From Listeria ivanovii subsp. londoniensis (GTDB taxonomy: Bacteria > Bacillota > Bacilli > Lactobacillales > Listeriaceae), in contig NZ_CP009576.1 in assembly GCF_000763495.1 (NCBI RefSeq), positions 1,064,001-1,128,000 of the forward strand: a DNA stretch of 64,000 bases, in the 5' to 3' direction. Position 1 is the stretch's first letter. The number at the start of each line of letters is the position of its first letter. Both the position numbers and the translations under genes were made by a program. The notes under the pieces are model-generated. The model was not told the DNA's origin. It made no database searches and was given only the letters and a program-made list of their open reading frames with translations. Positions 2,346-47,787 of the stretch are shown piece by piece.

Positions 2346-3182
2346 ATGTATAAAGATTTTGCAAACTTCATCCGGACCAATAAGGCAGACTTACTAAATA
2401 ATTGGATGAATGAAATGGAGAAACAATCAGACCAATTAATAAATGATATTGCAAAAGAACCTATGTATGAAGAAACGAGTAAAGAGTTTGTTGATTTGAT
2501 TGTTTCGAACATAACAGAAAATGGTTCTAAATTTAACGAAAAGTTAGATGATTTTGCAGAAAAAGTGGTCCATTTAGGTTGGCCCATTCATTTTGTCACC
2601 ACAGGCCTGCGTGTTTTCGGGCTTTTAGTATATACAGCTATGAGAGAGGAAGATTTATTTTTAAAAAGAGAAGAAAAACCAGAGGATGACGCCTATTATC
2701 GCTTTGAAACATGGCTTTCAACCATGTATAACAAAGTGGTGACAGCCTACGCGGATACGTGGGAAAAAACAGTTTCGATTCAAAAAAGTGCTTTACAGGA
2801 ATTATCGGCACCACTTTTGCCAATATTTGAAAAAATTTCTGTCATGCCACTAATTGGAACGATTGACACAGAAAGAGCTAAGTTAATCATCGAAAACTTA
2901 TTAATAGGCGTTGTAAAAAATCGGTCAGAAGTGGTATTGATTGATATTACGGGAGTTCCAGTAGTTGATACGATGGTTGCACATCATATCATTCAAGCAT
3001 CAGAAGCAGTTAGACTTGTCGGCTGTCAGGCAATGCTCGTAGGTATTAGACCAGAAATAGCGCAAACAATCGTTAATCTAGGAATTGAATTAGATCAAAT
3101 AATCACGACCAACACAATGAAAAAAGGCATGGAGCGTGCGCTTGCCTTGACGAACAGAGAGATAGTAGAAAAAGAGGGGTGA
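2346..3182 (+). CDS. rsbR: Stressosome sensor/scaffold RsbR
   Basis: A 278-residue protein with an N-terminal globin-like non-haem sensor domain (about residues 1-130), a linker, and a C-terminal STAS domain (about 155-265). The STAS core has [18 protein letters not shown] with threonines of the type phosphorylated by RsbT. RsbR and RsbS form the 1.8 MDa stressosome that holds RsbT until stress. It is the first gene of the eight-gene sigma-B operon. The 249-bp upstream gap should hold the vegetative promoter, but no clear -35/-10 pair was found. Confidence 0.95.
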
Positions 3183-3187
3183 ATACT

Positions 3188-3544
3188 GTGGGGATACCAA
3201 TCTTAAAGTTAGGTGAATGTTTATTAATTTCTATTCAAAGTGAATTAGATGATCAAACTGCGGTAGAATTCCAAGAAGACTTGCTAGCGAAAATCCATGA
3301 AACGTCGGCCAGAGGAGTAGTCATTGATATAACCTCAATCGATTTTATTGATTCGTTTATTGCAAAAATTCTTGGAGACGTAGTAAGTATGTCTAAGCTA
3401 ATGGGTGCAAAAGTGGTTGTAACTGGGATACAGCCTGCAGTTGCGATTACCTTAATTGAACTCGGAATTACTTTTAGTGGAGTGCTTTCGGCGATGGATC
3501 TTGAAAGTGGTCTGGAAAAACTTAAACAGGAATTGGGGGAATGA
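3188..3544 (+). CDS. rsbS: Stressosome antagonist RsbS (STAS domain)
   Basis: A single STAS-domain protein. [20 protein letters not shown] contains the serine that RsbT phosphorylates to dissolve the stressosome. A GTG at 3179 overlaps the rsbR stop, but GAGGGG at 3174-3179 is properly spaced for the GTG at 3188, giving 118 residues starting [10 protein letters not shown], the usual N-terminus. The stop overlaps the next ATG, indicating translational coupling to rsbT. Confidence 0.93.
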
Positions 3545-3546
3545 AT

Positions 3547-3957
3547 ATGACATTCCAATCCTGTGTAAAGATAATTAATGAGTGGGACATTGTGGCTGCA
3601 AGGCAACTAGGTAGAAAAATATCCAAAGAAATTGGCTTTGGAACAGTTGACCAGGCGAGAATAACGACAGCCATCAGTGAACTAGCAAGAAATATTTTCC
3701 TTTATGCTGGTCGAGGAGAAATCTGTATTGAGAAAGTAAGTGAAGCAGGCAAGCAAGGTATGATAATTGTTGCCAAAGATAAAGGACCGGGAATTGTTGA
3801 CCTTAGAAAAGTCATGCAAGATGGCTATACAACATCAGGTGGACTTGGTGCAGGCTTGCCAGGAGTTAAACGTTTAATGGATAGTTTTGATATTGAATCC
3901 AGTATTGAAGGAAATTCTAAAGGAACGGTAATCACAACAACGAAATGGGTTCGGTAA
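3547..3957 (+). CDS. rsbT: Serine kinase RsbT (GHKL ATPase)
   Basis: An anti-sigma-factor-type GHKL kinase. The N-box is ISELARNIFLYAG, the G1 box DKGPGIVD and the G2 box SGGLGAGLPGVKRL. Under stress RsbT phosphorylates RsbR and RsbS, leaves the stressosome and activates the phosphatase RsbU. The ATG at 3541 abuts GGGGGA, so the ATG at 3547, six bases downstream, is the more likely start (136 residues). The protein looks intact, but its target RsbU is disrupted in this sequence. Confidence 0.93.
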   Translation: MTFQSCVKIINEWDIVAARQLGRKISKEIGFGTVDQARITTAISELARNIFLYAGRGEICIEKVSEAGKQGMIIVAKDKGPGIVDLRKVMQDGYTTSGGLGAGLPGVKRLMDSFDIESSIEGNSKGTVITTTKWVR

Positions 3958-3973: not shown

Positions 3974-4977
3974 ATGGAAAAAGCCTTTGAGGGAAGATAC
4001 CGTGATATTCTTATTCAATATCTAGAACATCAAGATGAAGAACTACTTTATACTTGTGAAAAGTTGTCCCGAGAGGCAATGGAGGAACGTGTTTCACCAG
4101 AAGAAATTGTTCATTTACATCGTTCGGTACTAGAACTTTATGAAAAAGAATTACCAGAATTTGTGCGTTTATCGTTTGATGTGCTACTAGAAATAATGGT
4201 CGGCTATGGCTTAGCATATATGGAACATTTAAGCCTTAGAACAGAACAAAAAGAACTACGTAGTGAAATCGCTCAAGCAGAAGATATGCAAAAAACATTA
4301 ATGAAAACCGAACTACCAGAACATGATGAAATTGAGTTTGGTGTTATTAGTGTAGCAGCTAGACAAATGAGTGGCGACTATTATAGTTTTACAGAAGAAG
4401 GTGACAAAAAAATTGGTATCGCTCTTGCGGATGTTATTGGTAAAGGTATTCCAGCAGCATTTAGCATTTCGATGATCAAATATGCTTTAGCCGGGATGAC
4501 AGGGATGATAGGAAACCGTCTATCGTACTTGAATTACTAAACCAAGTAGCAGAAGAGAATATCAATGATAACATGTTTATTACGATGTTTTATGGACTTT
4601 ATCATGAAGAAACCCATTTATTTGAATACGGTTCTGCTGGACACGAACTGGGATTGTACTACCAACATCAAGAACGAATGTTTTCGGATTTATACGCAAA
4701 AGGTTTACCACTTGGTGTGGATAAAAATGCAGTCTATCGCCAATTTGACAAAAAGATTGAAGTGGGCGATATTGTTTTTATCATGTCAGATGGCGTGACT
4801 GAGACTAGAACAGCAGATGGCTTTATTGAACGAGAAGAATTAACGGAGATTATTGCTACATACATTCATCTGCCTGCTGAAAAAATGGTGCGAGCAATTT
4901 ACGATCAGTTAGTTAAATTGCAAAATTTTGAACTGCATGATGATTTTACACTAATTTGTATTAAACGAACAAATTGA
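3974..4977 (+). pseudogene. rsbU: RsbU PP2C-type phosphatase, frameshifted
   Basis: RsbU dephosphorylates RsbV-P when bound by RsbT and so frees SigB. Here the ATG at 3974 (after AAGGGGAGC) reads the RsbT-binding N-terminal domain and the first PPM metal motif ALADVIGKGIP, then stops at 4540 after 188 residues with the out-of-frame tail GNRLSYLNY. The homologous continuation (RKPSIVLELLNQVAEEN, then NMFITMFYG, SAGHE, MSDGVTETRT and DDFTLICI) lies one frame back from about 4507 to the TGA at 4975-4977. One extra base near 4507 (ATGAT to ATGGAT) restores a 334-residue protein, matching family length. The second half also has HELG where I expect HEPG. Without the second half the metal-binding aspartates of SDG and DD are lost, so the product should be inactive. 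Confidence 0.92.
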
Positions 4978-5064: not shown

Positions 5065-5089
5065 GTTTTGTTTTTATTTGTTAGGGTAA
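5065..5089 (+). promoter_or_regulatory. Sigma-B promoter of rsbV-rsbW-sigB-rsbX
   Basis: GTTT at 5065-5068, a 15-bp spacer, then GGGTAA at 5084-5089 match the sigma-B consensus. It lies 38 bp before rsbV, the known autoregulatory promoter position in Listeria and Bacillus, and lets SigB amplify its own four-gene half-operon. Confidence 0.93.
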
Positions 5090-5126: not shown

Positions 5127-5471
5127 ATGAATATTAGTATAGAAATAAAAGAACGAGATACGAAGCACATAGACATATTTGTTGCTGGGGAGATTGATGC
5201 TTACACAGCTCCAAAGGTAAAAGAAGCGTTAGAACTTTATCAAGTAAAAGAGGGTATTGTACTTCGAATTGACTTAACAGATGTAAGTTATATGGATAGT
5301 ACTGGCTTAGGTGTGTTTGTAGGAGCGTTCAAAAGCTTACGCCAACGTCAAAGTGAACTTGTCTTGTTTGGGTTGAGCGATCGGATTTTCCGATTGTTTG
5401 AAATCACAGGATTGTCTGATATCATTGAAATCAAAAATGTAGAGGGTGAAATGAATGGCAACAATGCATGA
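5127..5471 (+). CDS. rsbV: Anti-anti-sigma factor RsbV
   Basis: A 114-residue STAS protein. [19 protein letters not shown] contains the serine phosphorylated by RsbW. Unphosphorylated RsbV sequesters RsbW and releases SigB. GGGGTGA at 5116-5122 supports the ATG at 5127 rather than the GTG three bases upstream. The 3' end overlaps rsbW by 17 bp. With RsbU broken, RsbV should stay mostly phosphorylated unless another phosphatase acts. Confidence 0.95.
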
Positions 5472-5928
5472 CAAAATTACGTTACAACTTCCTGCCAAGC
5501 CTGAATATGTTAGTTTAGGTAGACTTTCATTATCAGGAATAGCGAGTCGTGCAGGATTTTCTTATGAGGCAATTGAAGATTTAAAAATAGCTGTGAGTGA
5601 AGCCATCACTAATTCTGTGAAACATGCATTCAAAGAAGAAGATGGCGGTGAAATCACAGTAGAATATCTTGTCTATGAAGATAAACTTGAAGTTCGTGTT
5701 TCCGATAACGGAACAAGCTTTGATTTAGAAAGTCGTAAACAAGAAATTGGCCCATATGATGTCGGTGAAGATGCAGAAATGATGCGTATTGGTGGACTAG
5801 GTTTATTTTTAATCGAAACATTAATGGATGATGTGAAACTTTATTATGATGAAGGGGTTTCCGTCGTAATGACCAAATATATTAATGAAAAGCAGGTGGA
5901 GGAGAATGCCAAAAGTATCTCAACCTGA
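5455..5928 (+). CDS. rsbW: Anti-sigma-B factor and serine kinase RsbW
   Basis: A GHKL-fold kinase of 157 residues that binds SigB and phosphorylates RsbV. The N-box is [14 protein letters not shown], the G1 box SDNGTSFDL and the G2 box [15 protein letters not shown]. The start ATG at 5455 lies inside rsbV and has AGAGGGTGAA just before it. The 3' end overlaps sigB by 23 bp, so the three products are translationally coupled and made in fixed ratio. Confidence 0.95.
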
Positions 5929-6685
5929 TAAAGAAGCAAAAGAAAAAGTGTATATTTGGATTGCTGCCTATCAAGAAAACGGTGATCAAGATGCTCAGTA
6001 TAACTTAGTGGTGCATTATAAAAACTTAGTAGAATCCATTGCACGTAAGTATTCTCAGGGTAAGTCTTTTCACGAAGACTTAGTCCAAGTAGGAAATATT
6101 GGATTGCTAGGTGCGATTAGACGTTATGATGCAACGTTCGGAAAAAGCTTTGAAGCATTTGCTGTGCCAACAATAGTTGGTGAGATTAAACGTTTTTTAC
6201 GCGATAAAACATGGAGTGTTCATGTACCACGTCGCATAAAAGAACTTGGTCCGAAAATTAAGAATGCCGTCGAAGAGCTAACAAGAGAATTGCAAAGCTC
6301 ACCCCAAATTAGCGATATTGCAGATTTCATCGGTGTGACGGAAGAAGAAGTTTTAGAAGCAATGGAAATGGGTAAAAGCTATCAAGCGCTCTCAGTAGAC
6401 CATTCAATTGAAGCGGATTCTGATGGGAGTACTATCACGCTACTTGATGTAGTTGGTGGCACAGATGATGGATTTGAACGTGTGAATCAACGAATGCTTT
6501 TAGAGAAAGTTCTCCCAGTTTTAGACGAGCGAGAACAGAAAATTTTGCAATATACTTTTATTGAAAATCGCAGCCAAAAAGAAACAGGAGAGCTGCTCGA
6601 TATATCGCAAATGCATGTGTCTAGAATCCAACGTCAAGCAATTAAAAAACTTCGAGAGGCGTTGCAGAATGAGGAAGTGGAGTAA
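5906..6685 (+). CDS. sigB: RNA polymerase sigma factor SigB
   Basis: The general-stress sigma factor, 259 residues. Region 2 holds [23 protein letters not shown] and the following [11 protein letters not shown]; the region 4 helix-turn-helix is [16 protein letters not shown] near the C-terminus. An in-frame ATG at 5885 exists, but GGTGGAGGAG at 5895-5904 points to the ATG at 5906 (MPKVSQPDK). It recognises GTTT-N14-16-GGGWAT promoters, of which several good matches occur in this window. The gene is intact. Confidence 0.97.
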
Positions 6686-7285
6686 ATGAACAAGGCGGTT
6701 GAATCAAATAATTTATTTGTATTTCAACGTTCTAAAGCATTACAACAATACTGCGGGGATGTTTATTTTACCCATGAAGACGAAAATGGTTTTCTATATG
6801 TTCTTTCTGATGGGCTTGGTAGTGGTCTAGAAGCTAATAGAGCTGCAAAAGCGACTATTGAAGCCATAAAAGAAGATATCCATGCTGACTTAACTCATAT
6901 GCTCGAAAAGGCGAACCAAGCTGTCTCAGGCCTTCGTGGCGCTGCAATTGCGATTATTAAAGCAGATTACTTAACAAAAACGATTTATTATACCGGTATG
7001 GGCAATATTCGTTTTTATATGATTGGGTCTGAGGATAAACTTATTTTTCCTCTTTCTGGGTCTGGCTTTTTGTCAGGCAGGAAACAGAAATATCGTTTGC
7101 AGAACTTTAAATATAAATCTGGAAGTAAGTTTTTGCTCCACTCAGATGGGCTGGTTCTTTCTCGTGTTAGAAAGAATTTAGAATCACCACTTTGTGTAGT
7201 GAAGCTTGGTCATCTCATCGAACAATCCATTTTAGATATACCAACTGATGATGTTACTTTCTTGCTCGGTCAATTTCCAAACTAA
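6686..7285 (+). CDS. rsbX: Feedback phosphatase RsbX
   Basis: A 199-residue PPM/SpoIIE-type phosphatase. LYVLSDGLGSGLEANRAA carries the first metal motif and DVTFLLG the last. RsbX dephosphorylates RsbS and RsbR to reset the stressosome after stress. The ATG follows the sigB stop directly. It is the last gene of the operon, followed by a strong terminator. Despite its fold it is not known to act on RsbV, so it should not simply replace RsbU. Confidence 0.92.
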   Translation: MNKAVESNNLFVFQRSKALQQYCGDVYFTHEDENGFLYVLSDGLGSGLEANRAAKATIEAIKEDIHADLTHMLEKANQAVSGLRGAAIAIIKADYLTKTIYYTGMGNIRFYMIGSEDKLIFPLSGSGFLSGRKQKYRLQNFKYKSGSKFLLHSDGLVLSRVRKNLESPLCVVKLGHLIEQSILDIPTDDVTFLLGQFPN

Positions 7286-16631: not shown

Positions 16632-17129
16632 ATGGCGAATTATATTAATAAAGCAAGGCGCCAAATTGACTTTGATCCATTTGATTTACGAATAGTTGCT
16701 GTGCCAGAAGTAGTAGCGGTTACTTTTAAACCACGAAACGAGCACACATTGCTTATTCGTATTGCGGATGTTGGTGCAACCTATCAGCCATTAAAAAATG
16801 AATCACTTTTCGAAGCTATTTTTCCTGTTCACTTTAACGATATAAACGAACAAGACGATTACTGGGGATTAAGTGAGAAAGAAGAAGCTGAAATGAAACT
16901 CTTTAATGAAGCGCATCGGGAAATGATTTATAAGTTTATTGACGCACATCCAGATTTCACTCAAATTATTGTCCATTGTCATGCTGGAGTAAGTAGAAGT
17001 AGTGCTGTTGCCATGGGTATTGCTGAGCATCTTGGTGACAATGATACGTTTACTAAACTCCAAGAAATCAAACGTTATTTACCAAATCCGCGGGTTCTCG
17101 CAATTATGCGAGGCGAGGCGTATTTATAG
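16632..17129 (+). CDS. Dual-specificity/tyrosine phosphatase-like protein
   Basis: A 165-residue protein whose [20 protein letters not shown] contains the cysteine-phosphatase loop HCxxGxSRS. Such proteins remove phosphate from Tyr/Ser/Thr or small phospho-compounds; the substrate is unknown. AAGGGGA upstream fits the ATG at 16632; the in-frame TTG at 16602 is less likely. It lies 28 bp before the reductase gene, so the two may form an operon. Recalled equivalent: lmo0905. Confidence 0.8.
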
Positions 17130-17157
17130 AAATGAAGAAATGTTAGGAGAGATTCAT

Positions 17158-18507
17158 ATGGAAAGTCATTATGATTATATTGCAATTGGCGGAGGAAGCG
17201 GGGGAATTGCCTCTATTAACCGAGCGGCAATGCACGGAGCAAAATGTGCACTAATTGAACCAAAATTCTTAGGTGGAACTTGTGTAAATGTAGGTTGTGT
17301 TCCTAAAAAAGTGATGTGGTATGGTGCGCAAATTAAAGAAGCGATGGATTTATATGCAGATGCTTACGGGTACAAAGTAGATGCAAGTTTCAACTTCCAA
17401 AAATTAGTTGAAAATCGGGAAGCTTATATTGAACGTATTCGTGGCTCGTACAAAAACGGGCTTGATAATAATAAAGTCGATTGGATAAAAGGTTATGCAG
17501 AATTTGTGGATGAAAATACCTTACGAGTAAACGGTGAAATAATCACTGCTGATCATATTCTAATTGCAACTGGCGGAAAACCAGCTTTACCTTCTATCCC
17601 AGGAGCCGCGTTTGGAATCACATCAGATGGTTTTTTCGCTTTAAAACAATTACCAAAAAAAGTAGCAATAGTTGGTGCAGGCTATATTGCAGTCGAGCTT
17701 GCGGGTGTTTTACAACAACTTGGATCAGAGACTCATTTGTTTGTGCGTAAACATGCACCGCTTCGGAATTTTGATCCTATTTTAACAGATACATTAACTG
17801 AAATAATCGAAGAGTCAAACATGACCTTACATAAACACGCCGTTCCTCAAAAAGTCGAAAAAAATATGGATGAAAGTTTAACTTTATATTTAGAGGATGG
17901 TCGAACAGAAACAGTGGACGTGCTTATTTGGGCAATTGGAAGAAAACCGGTCATAGATGGTTTGCAAATCGAAAAAGCTGGTGTAAAGCTTCTAGAAAGT
18001 GGACATATAGCGGTAGATAAATTTCAAAATACGAATGTTTCTGGAATCTATGCAGTTGGAGATGTTACTGGACATTATGAATTAACGCCAGTCGCGATTG
18101 CAGCTGGTAGACGCCTATCAGAACGTCTTTTTAATAATAACGAAAATGCGCATCTTACCTATGAAAACATTCCGACAGTCGTATTTAGCCATCCAGCAAT
18201 TGGAACTGTTGGTTTAACGGAGCCAGAAGCTATTAAAAAATATGGCAAAGAAAATATCAAAGTTTACACATCTAAATTTACTTCTATGTATACTGCTATA
18301 ACAGATTACCGTGAACCCTGTCGAATGAAATTGATTTGTGAGGGTGAAACAGAACGGGTTATCGGCTTACATGGGATTGGATATGGTGTGGATGAAATGA
18401 TTCAAGGGTTTGCAGTTGCGATTAATATGGGGGCGACGAAAGCGGATTTCGATAATACAGTTGCCATTCACCCAACAGGATCAGAAGAATTTGTTACAAT
18501 GAAATAA
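17158..18507 (+). CDS. Glutathione-disulfide reductase-like flavoprotein
   Basis: A 449-residue class I pyridine nucleotide-disulfide oxidoreductase. The N-terminal FAD loop is GGGSGG, the redox pair is CVNVGC in [16 protein letters not shown], the NADPH site is [11 protein letters not shown] with arginines in [10 protein letters not shown] that favour NADPH, and the C-terminal active-site HPTGSEE is present. These fit glutathione reductase, which keeps glutathione reduced. AGGAGA at 17145-17150 sets the ATG at 17158; the in-frame starts upstream lie inside the phosphatase gene. Recalled equivalent: lmo0906. Confidence 0.92.
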
Positions 18508-47025: not shown

Positions 47026-47046
47026 ATTGTTTTAGGGGGGATTAAG

Positions 47047-47787
47047 GTGAATCAAGCAATTGACACGATACTAGGGCATTATTCAGTTCGGAAATTTGAA
47101 GATACGGCACTAACAAAAGAAGAACTAGCGATACTTATAAAAAGCGCACAAGCTGCTTCGACATCTAGTTTTGTTCAAGCTTATTCGATTGTCGGTATAG
47201 CGGATAAACAAATTCGTGAAAAAGTTTCCGCAATTGCTGGAAATCAACCATATACAGTCCAAACGGGGCAACTATTTATATTTGTCGCGGATTTAGCAAG
47301 ACATCATACTATTTTAGAAAGCGAAGAATTAGATATAGAAGCACTGTCAACTTCGGAAAAATGGCTTGTCGCAGTAATTGATGCCGCTCTTGCAGCACAA
47401 AATATGGCTATAGCAGCTGAATCACTGGGCTTAGGTATTTGCTATATCGGCGGAATTAGAAATGATGTCGAAAAAATAGCAGAAATTTTAGAATTACCAC
47501 CATATACGATGCCGTTATTTGGTCTGACGGTCGGACATCCTGTAACAAATCAAGAAGCGGCAAAGCCAAGATTACCACAAGAGTTGATTTATCACCAAAA
47601 TACCTATCAAAAAATGAATCCAGCAATTTTAGCAGACTACGATGAAAAAATAAAACAGTATTATGATGATAGAACCGCTGGAAAACGTGTCGAAAGCTGG
47701 TCTGAACAAATCGCGCGTGGCTTAAGTAGGAAAAGCCGGCTAGATTTAAAAGCATTCTTAGAAAAACAACATTTAAGTCAAAAATAA
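47047..47787 (+). CDS. NfsA/NfrA-type FMN nitroreductase
   Basis: A 246-residue flavin oxidoreductase. HYSVRKFEDTALTKEEL is the FMN-binding N-terminus and GLGICYIGGIRNDVEKI and the following PLFGLTVGHP are typical of the NfsA subgroup, which uses NADPH to reduce nitro-compounds or free flavin. The start is GTG after AGGGGGG. Recalled equivalent: lmo0936. Confidence 0.9.
   Translation: MNQAIDTILGHYSVRKFEDTALTKEELAILIKSAQAASTSSFVQAYSIVGIADKQIREKVSAIAGNQPYTVQTGQLFIFVADLARHHTILESEELDIEALSTSEKWLVAVIDAALAAQNMAIAAESLGLGICYIGGIRNDVEKIAEILELPPYTMPLFGLTVGHPVTNQEAAKPRLPQELIYHQNTYQKMNPAILADYDEKIKQYYDDRTAGKRVESWSEQIARGLSRKSRLDLKAFLEKQHLSQK

What the first reader, a model, noticed from the sequence alone, without database searches (positions are those of the whole stretch)
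4490..4600. Frameshifted rsbU: the stress-to-SigB signal relay is cut
Seen: the frame from 3974 stops at 4540, while the PPM homology continues one frame back from about 4507 to 4977; one added base near 4507 restores a 334-residue RsbU. Known: RsbU is the only RsbV-P phosphatase driven by the stressosome, and Listeria is not known to have RsbP. Inference: SigB activation by environmental stress should be strongly weakened while all other rsb genes and SigB remain intact. Loss-of-function sigB-operon mutations are reported in Listeria laboratory and natural isolates, so this may be selected, and may explain strain traits.
Basis: partly seen in the sequence, partly recalled or inferred. Interest (0 to 1): 0.85.

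Follow-up and report, generated by a model that had tools for sequence, protein, structure and literature searches.

The report
Broken stress-switch gene in Listeria ivanovii
In this Listeria ivanovii reference genome the gene for RsbU, the phosphatase that passes stress signals on to the stress sigma factor SigB, is cut in two by a small frame break, which probably blunts the strain's stress response; breaks of this kind are already well known in Listeria strains.

Summary
In the deposited sequence rsbU (3974-4977) is split into two frames that meet near 4504; the other seven sigB-operon genes are open. Of 25 Listeria genomes searched (this one included), 23 have an open RsbU frame; one other has an internal stop. 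The break separates conserved acidic residues of the phosphatase domain, so neither fragment should work. The genome's only other proteins matching this phosphatase family are RsbX and an Stp1-type phosphatase, so no RsbP-like substitute was found. Loss of the stress relay to SigB is likely but unmeasured; RsbV-independent activation, published for L. monocytogenes at 4 °C, could remain. Genome length and a prophage at a tRNA-Ser identify the strain as L. ivanovii subsp. londoniensis WSLC 30151, sequenced by PacBio alone. An assembly error cannot be excluded, although the break is not a homopolymer length change and few such breaks appear in 245 kb compared. Loss-of-function rsbU alleles are well documented in L. 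monocytogenes laboratory, field and collection strains, so this is a new instance of a known kind in another species. Three other representative genomes carry internal stops in rsbU, rsbV or sigB; the excess over flanking genes is not robust.

The parts
3974..4540 (+). 5' part of rsbU in its original frame: RsbU_N domain and the first part of the SpoIIE/PPM phosphatase domain, ending in a premature stop
   Evidence: N part matches solved RsbU structures such as 2j6y at 1e-22
4465..4977 (+). 3' part of rsbU, open in another frame; homology starts near 4504; first ATG in this frame at 4573
4493..4508 (+). region of the frame break; the 7-mer GGGATGA occurs twice, 9 bases apart, across it; no homopolymer of 4 or more in the 4465-4540 overlap
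   Evidence: 7-mer read by eye; break; overlap scan
2346..3182 (+). rsbR, full length (278 aa)
3188..3544 (+). rsbS, full length (118 aa from the GTG at 3188; the listed ORF starts at 3179)
3541..3957 (+). rsbT, full length
5065..5089 (+). SigB-type promoter consensus (GTTT, 15-base gap, GGGTAA) upstream of rsbV, present in 15 of the 15 genomes aligned (of 25); the consensus is recalled
5127..5471 (+). rsbV, full length
5455..5928 (+). rsbW, full length
5906..6685 (+). sigB, full length; NCBIfam Sigma_B equivalog above cut-off
6686..7285 (+). rsbX, full length

Best explanation
A young, net one-base frameshift has made rsbU a pseudogene in the L. ivanovii subsp. londoniensis WSLC 30151 lineage or in the culture that was sequenced. 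Shown: the break, the intact neighbours, intact copies in relatives, and the division of conserved acidic residues of the phosphatase between two frames. Inferred from the known pathway: without RsbU, RsbV stays phosphorylated, RsbW keeps SigB bound, and the stressosome's signal (RsbR, RsbS, RsbT) does not reach SigB. The SigB-type promoter upstream of rsbV would then also lose its positive feedback. Inferred from published work on L. monocytogenes: such losses can favour growth under mild conditions and spread in laboratory culture.
For: Frame break and homology switch at 4504. Intact RsbU in G021 and open RsbU frames in 23 of 25 genus genomes, own included. Five aspartates, D135 and D153 before the break and D273, D323 and D324 after it, are kept in 24 of 24 other genus genomes aligned to the G021 protein (G021 itself among them). 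dN/dS against G021 is 0.030 for the 5' part and 0.091 for the 3' part; the seven intact operon genes give 0.010-0.086, so little decay has followed the break. The break is not a homopolymer length change, and no X XXY YYZ slip heptamer or run of 4 or more lies in the frame overlap. No further RsbV-phosphatase candidate among PF07228 proteins. Precedents, all seen as passages: rsbU frameshift in two EGDe isolates with reduced chitinase activity (PMC7167478); three field strains with one-base rsbU frameshifts (PMC7574537); rsbU Q317* called loss of function, with a growth advantage at 30 °C (PMC13068326); rsbU frameshifts in evolved biofilms (PMC12824596); rsbS, rsbV and rsbU lesions in collection strains (PMC3556495).
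Against: The genome was assembled from PacBio RS2 reads alone with HGAP3 at 184-fold coverage, and its announcement lists 3,015 genes and 104 pseudogenes, so a residual consensus error is possible. In the window's own letters the break borders a run of three identical bases. I had no second genome of the same strain or subspecies; the genome search holds one genome per species. I saw no measurement of SigB activity for this strain. The excess of broken genes in the sigB operon over flanking genes is not robust: p 0.027 in the most favourable cut, 0.094 in the next, 0.39-0.50 over all 25 genomes.
Confidence: 0.66

Rival explanations
1. Assembly error: the living strain has an intact rsbU, and the break is a residual PacBio consensus error.
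For: PacBio-only HGAP3 assembly, 104 annotated pseudogenes; the held contig is 18 bases longer than the length in the announcement; a run of three identical bases borders the break in the window.
Against: The indel is not a length change within a run in the longer allele. In about 245 kb aligned to G021 I judge only two uncompensated indels to truncate a gene clearly well inside it: rsbU, and a T2SSE-type ATPase near 1,525,289 of the genome; a few other listed entries were not resolved. Stop-codon lesions, which I would expect less often from this kind of error, occur in the operon of three other genomes.
Confidence: 0.27
2. The break is real but RsbU activity survives through recoding, through reinitiation at the ATG at 4573, or through reassembly of the two fragments.
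For: The two frames overlap from 4465 to 4540, and the downstream frame has an ATG with 32 bases between it and the stop.
Against: No slip heptamer and no run of 4 or more in the overlap; no strong ribosome-binding site is obvious by eye in the 20 bases upstream of 4573 printed there. The domain is cut within its core, and the 23 open copies need no recoding.
Confidence: 0.04
3. The break is real but has little effect on stress survival, because SigB is still activated without RsbV dephosphorylation or because another lesion compensates. (This overlaps with the best explanation, so the odds do not add up to one.)
For: RsbV-independent SigB activation at 4 °C (PMC3964741, abstract) and in an rpsU mutant (PMC10977602, passages) in L. 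monocytogenes.
Against: rsbW and rsbX are full length here; rpsU of this genome was not examined. Published rsbU lesions go with lower chitinase activity, nisin sensitivity or weaker acid survival (passages).
Confidence: 0.1

Closest known systems
Loss-of-function rsbU alleles of L. monocytogenes (EGDe isolates; field strains N12-0551, N11-1846, N12-0570; MQ140025 rsbU Q317*)
   Same: Frameshift or stop in the same gene (passages)
   Different: Another species, L. ivanovii; another position in the gene; no phenotype measured here; MQ140025 also carries an rsbX change
sigB-operon lesions in culture-collection strains (rsbS in SLCC2372, rsbV in ATCC19117, rsbU in SLCC2379; PMC3556495, passages)
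   Same: Lesion in a SigB regulator of a collection strain noticed by genome comparison
   Different: The paper calls them deletions, in L. monocytogenes; here it is a one-base frame break
Bacillus subtilis RsbU (solved N-terminal domains 1w53, 2j6y, 2j6z, 2j70; the organism is recalled)
   Same: The N-terminal fragment matches over residues 4-109
   Different: Here the phosphatase domain is not continuous; the C-terminal fragment matches no solved chain at E 0.01

Membership tests
RsbU (stressosome-driven RsbV-P phosphatase) | RsbU_N domain | tested here: met
   PF08673, 7e-29, above cut-off
RsbU (stressosome-driven RsbV-P phosphatase) | One continuous frame carrying the whole SpoIIE/PPM domain | tested here: not met
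   Profile positions 2-34 and 36-191 lie in different frames
RsbU (stressosome-driven RsbV-P phosphatase) | Position between rsbT and rsbV in the sigB operon | tested here: met
RsbU (stressosome-driven RsbV-P phosphatase) | Activated by RsbT and dephosphorylates RsbV-P | not testable with these tools
   needs biochemistry
Loss-of-function sigB-operon alleles of Listeria | Disruptive lesion in a positive regulator with intact relatives | tested here: met
Loss-of-function sigB-operon alleles of Listeria | Lesion confirmed by independent reads | not testable with these tools
   No reads or second assembly of the strain held
Loss-of-function sigB-operon alleles of Listeria | Lowered SigB-dependent expression | not testable with these tools
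   needs transcript measurement
Loss-of-function sigB-operon alleles of Listeria | Operon broken more often than flanking genes across genus representatives | tested here: inconclusive
   14 genomes chosen: 4 of 112 operon copies against 2 of 377 (p 0.027) or 5 of 428 (p 0.094); all 25: 6 of 199 against 12 of 515 or 15 of 549 (p 0.39, 0.50)
Programmed frameshift gene | Slip heptamer in the frame overlap | tested here: not met
   none in 4465-4540

The most novel reading that the evidence does not exclude
Loss of SigB signalling is a recurrent, genus-wide outcome in Listeria strains used as species references. Besides this L. ivanovii strain, three of four mutually close genomes (G007, G010, G023, but not G014) carry an internal stop in sigB, rsbU or rsbV, so several reference genomes may describe stress-blind derivatives, selected on plates or in nature, rather than the wild type of their species.
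Probability: 0.4. Interest if true: 0.45.

Novelty: new member of a known kind. Interest (0 to 1): 0.3.

Why it matters
If real, stress, acid-survival and biofilm phenotypes measured in WSLC 30151 may not stand for L. ivanovii subsp. londoniensis, and the strain would be a natural rsbU-negative comparison for its sister strain WSLC 30167. It would also carry a pattern known from L. monocytogenes into a second species. If it is an assembly error, the reference sequence needs a correction note.

Tried and rejected
Second copy of rsbU in the genome: one DNA match only. Programmed frameshift: rejected, no slip site. RsbP-like substitute: none among PF07228 proteins; the third one is an Stp1-type phosphatase. 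Other frame breaks in the window against G021: candidates near 47030 and 57002 look like longer 5' reading frames in G021 rather than broken genes in the window. For 57002, the GntR-type protein has an open frame of 226-294 codons in the 24 genomes with a strong match, 241 in the window's genome and 294 in G021 (whose list of further, weaker matches was cut); the nitroreductase at 47047 was checked by Pfam only.

Operon-wide enrichment of lesions: not robust. The subset of 14 genomes was chosen. It drops G004 (83% complete, three breaks in flanking genes and none in the operon), the ten more distant or fragmented genomes, and two poorly conserved antisense frames; in the 14-genome counts a gene also had to match at over 70% identity, which drops one flanking-gene break in G024. 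These choices favour the enrichment.

The invariance of acidic residues printed came from 21 proteins picked with a motif filter that itself held two of the residues; I replaced it with an unfiltered count over 24 genomes. An idea not tested: the repeated 7-mer at the break may have templated the change. Paper searches for rsbU with Listeria ivanovii (4 papers listed; I read passages of one, PMC3556495) and for WSLC 30151 (only the announcement) showed no earlier report of this lesion in what I saw. One search (a paper search on RsbU structure) found nothing.

Full report
What is there. [quoted passage not shown] Seven genes are open over their full length. rsbU is not: its frame from 3974 ends at 4540, and the rest of the protein lies in another frame, open from 4465 to 4977, with the homology switching at 4504. 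The intact RsbU of G021, the best match after the window's own genome among the 60 genomes searched, has 334 residues; it matches the first frame over residues 1-177 and the second over 178-333.

Whose genome it is. The window lies in a single contig of 3,045,035 bases. The announcement of L. ivanovii subsp. londoniensis WSLC 30151 gives 3,045,017 bases and a prophage at 756388-792505 inserted into a tRNA-Ser (PMC4319588, whole text). In the contig a tRNA-Ser gene lies at 756,329-756,418 (in locus L142, which starts at 752,001) and a phage terminase match at 773,893. G021, with 2,919,550 bases and 94% identity, fits WSLC 3010 (2,919,538 bases). I take the strain identity as near certain; the 18-base difference in length is unexplained.

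Is it in the organism? The assembly is PacBio RS2 only, HGAP3, 184-fold, with 104 pseudogenes reported, so this had to be tested. Against G021 the window shows 60 indels, 47 of one base, of which 26 lie in runs of 4 or more. The rsbU indel is not in a run in the longer allele, though the window's own letters form a run of three beside it. A second block of 200 kb (180,798 bases aligned) shows 142 indels. Of the 12 and 17 entries listed inside reading frames in the two blocks, many are compensated nearby or sit close to a frame's end. I judge two to truncate a gene clearly: rsbU, and a T2SSE-type ATPase (162 against 347 residues) near 1,525,289. I did not resolve every remaining entry (for example one near 1,446,856). 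This argues against an assembly full of indel errors, but it does not exclude one at this site.

Age. dN/dS against G021 is 0.030 for the first 175 codons and 0.091 for the last 134; the seven intact genes give 0.010-0.086. The gene shows no long decay, as expected of a recent loss, and equally of an assembly error.

What it does. Five aspartates of the phosphatase domain (D135 and D153; D273, D323 and D324 of the G021 protein) lie on opposite sides of the break and are kept in 24 of 24 other genus genomes, G021 included. That they bind the metal ions is recalled from related phosphatases; one paper states that rsbU Q317* removes a C-terminal Mn2+ site (PMC13068326, passages). The genome's matches to PF07228 are the two RsbU pieces, RsbX, and a 252-residue protein that is an Stp1-type phosphatase by NCBIfam (303 bits against a cut-off of 230). 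Hence no RsbP-like protein was found by this family, in line with a review on L. monocytogenes (PMC7358398, passages). By the pathway described there, RsbV should remain phosphorylated and SigB bound to RsbW. The promoter-like site upstream of rsbV, GTTT-N15-GGGTAA at 5065-5089, is present in 15 of the 15 genomes aligned, of 25.

Comparison across the genus. The operon was found in 25 of 25 genus genomes (in G009 the stretch ends at the contig end before rsbX). Five carry a broken gene in it: this one (rsbU), G010 (rsbU, TAA at residue 312 of 334), G007 (sigB, TGA at 189 of 259), G023 (rsbV, TGA at 60 of 114), and G017 (rsbR and rsbW, a draft 89% complete with further frame breaks in flanking genes). 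Against flanking genes the excess is suggestive only: 4 of 112 gene copies against 2 of 377 in 14 chosen genomes (p 0.027), 5 of 428 with rarer genes included (p 0.094), and 6 of 199 against 12 of 515 or 15 of 549 in all 25 (p 0.39, 0.50). The choice of 14 was made after seeing the data and favours the excess.

What is known. rsbU loss by frameshift or stop is reported in EGDe laboratory isolates (PMC7167478, passages), field strains (PMC7574537, passages), a clinical isolate with a growth advantage at 30 °C (PMC13068326, passages), and evolved biofilms (PMC12824596, passages); an rsbU deletion is reported in a culture-collection strain (PMC3556495, passages). The finding is therefore a new instance of a known kind, in another species. 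SigB activation without RsbV is reported at 4 °C (PMC3964741, abstract) and in an rpsU mutant (PMC10977602, passages), so the strain may keep some SigB activity.

Verdict. Interest is modest.

Noticed in passing
L066 position 3454 (G010), L063 position 5010 (G007), L079 position 3832 (G023): Internal stop codons in rsbU, sigB and rsbV of three other Listeria representative genomes.
   Followed up: partly
L128 5223-5708 (window's genome near 1,525,289): A T2SSE-type ATPase gene is cut to 162 residues by a frame break, against 347 in G021; its likely name, comGA, is recalled.
   Followed up: partly
1467-2096: Two small genes directly upstream of rsbR look like a MazEF-type toxin-antitoxin pair; recalled from position and sequence, not tested.
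   Followed up: no
L073 and L096 (G017): The draft G017 shows frame breaks or stops in rsbR, rsbW and three flanking genes, which looks like draft quality rather than biology.
   Followed up: no
17002-18507: A 501-residue pyridine nucleotide-disulphide oxidoreductase frame; the same stretch of G021 has one stop, perhaps only in a 5' extension.
   Followed up: no
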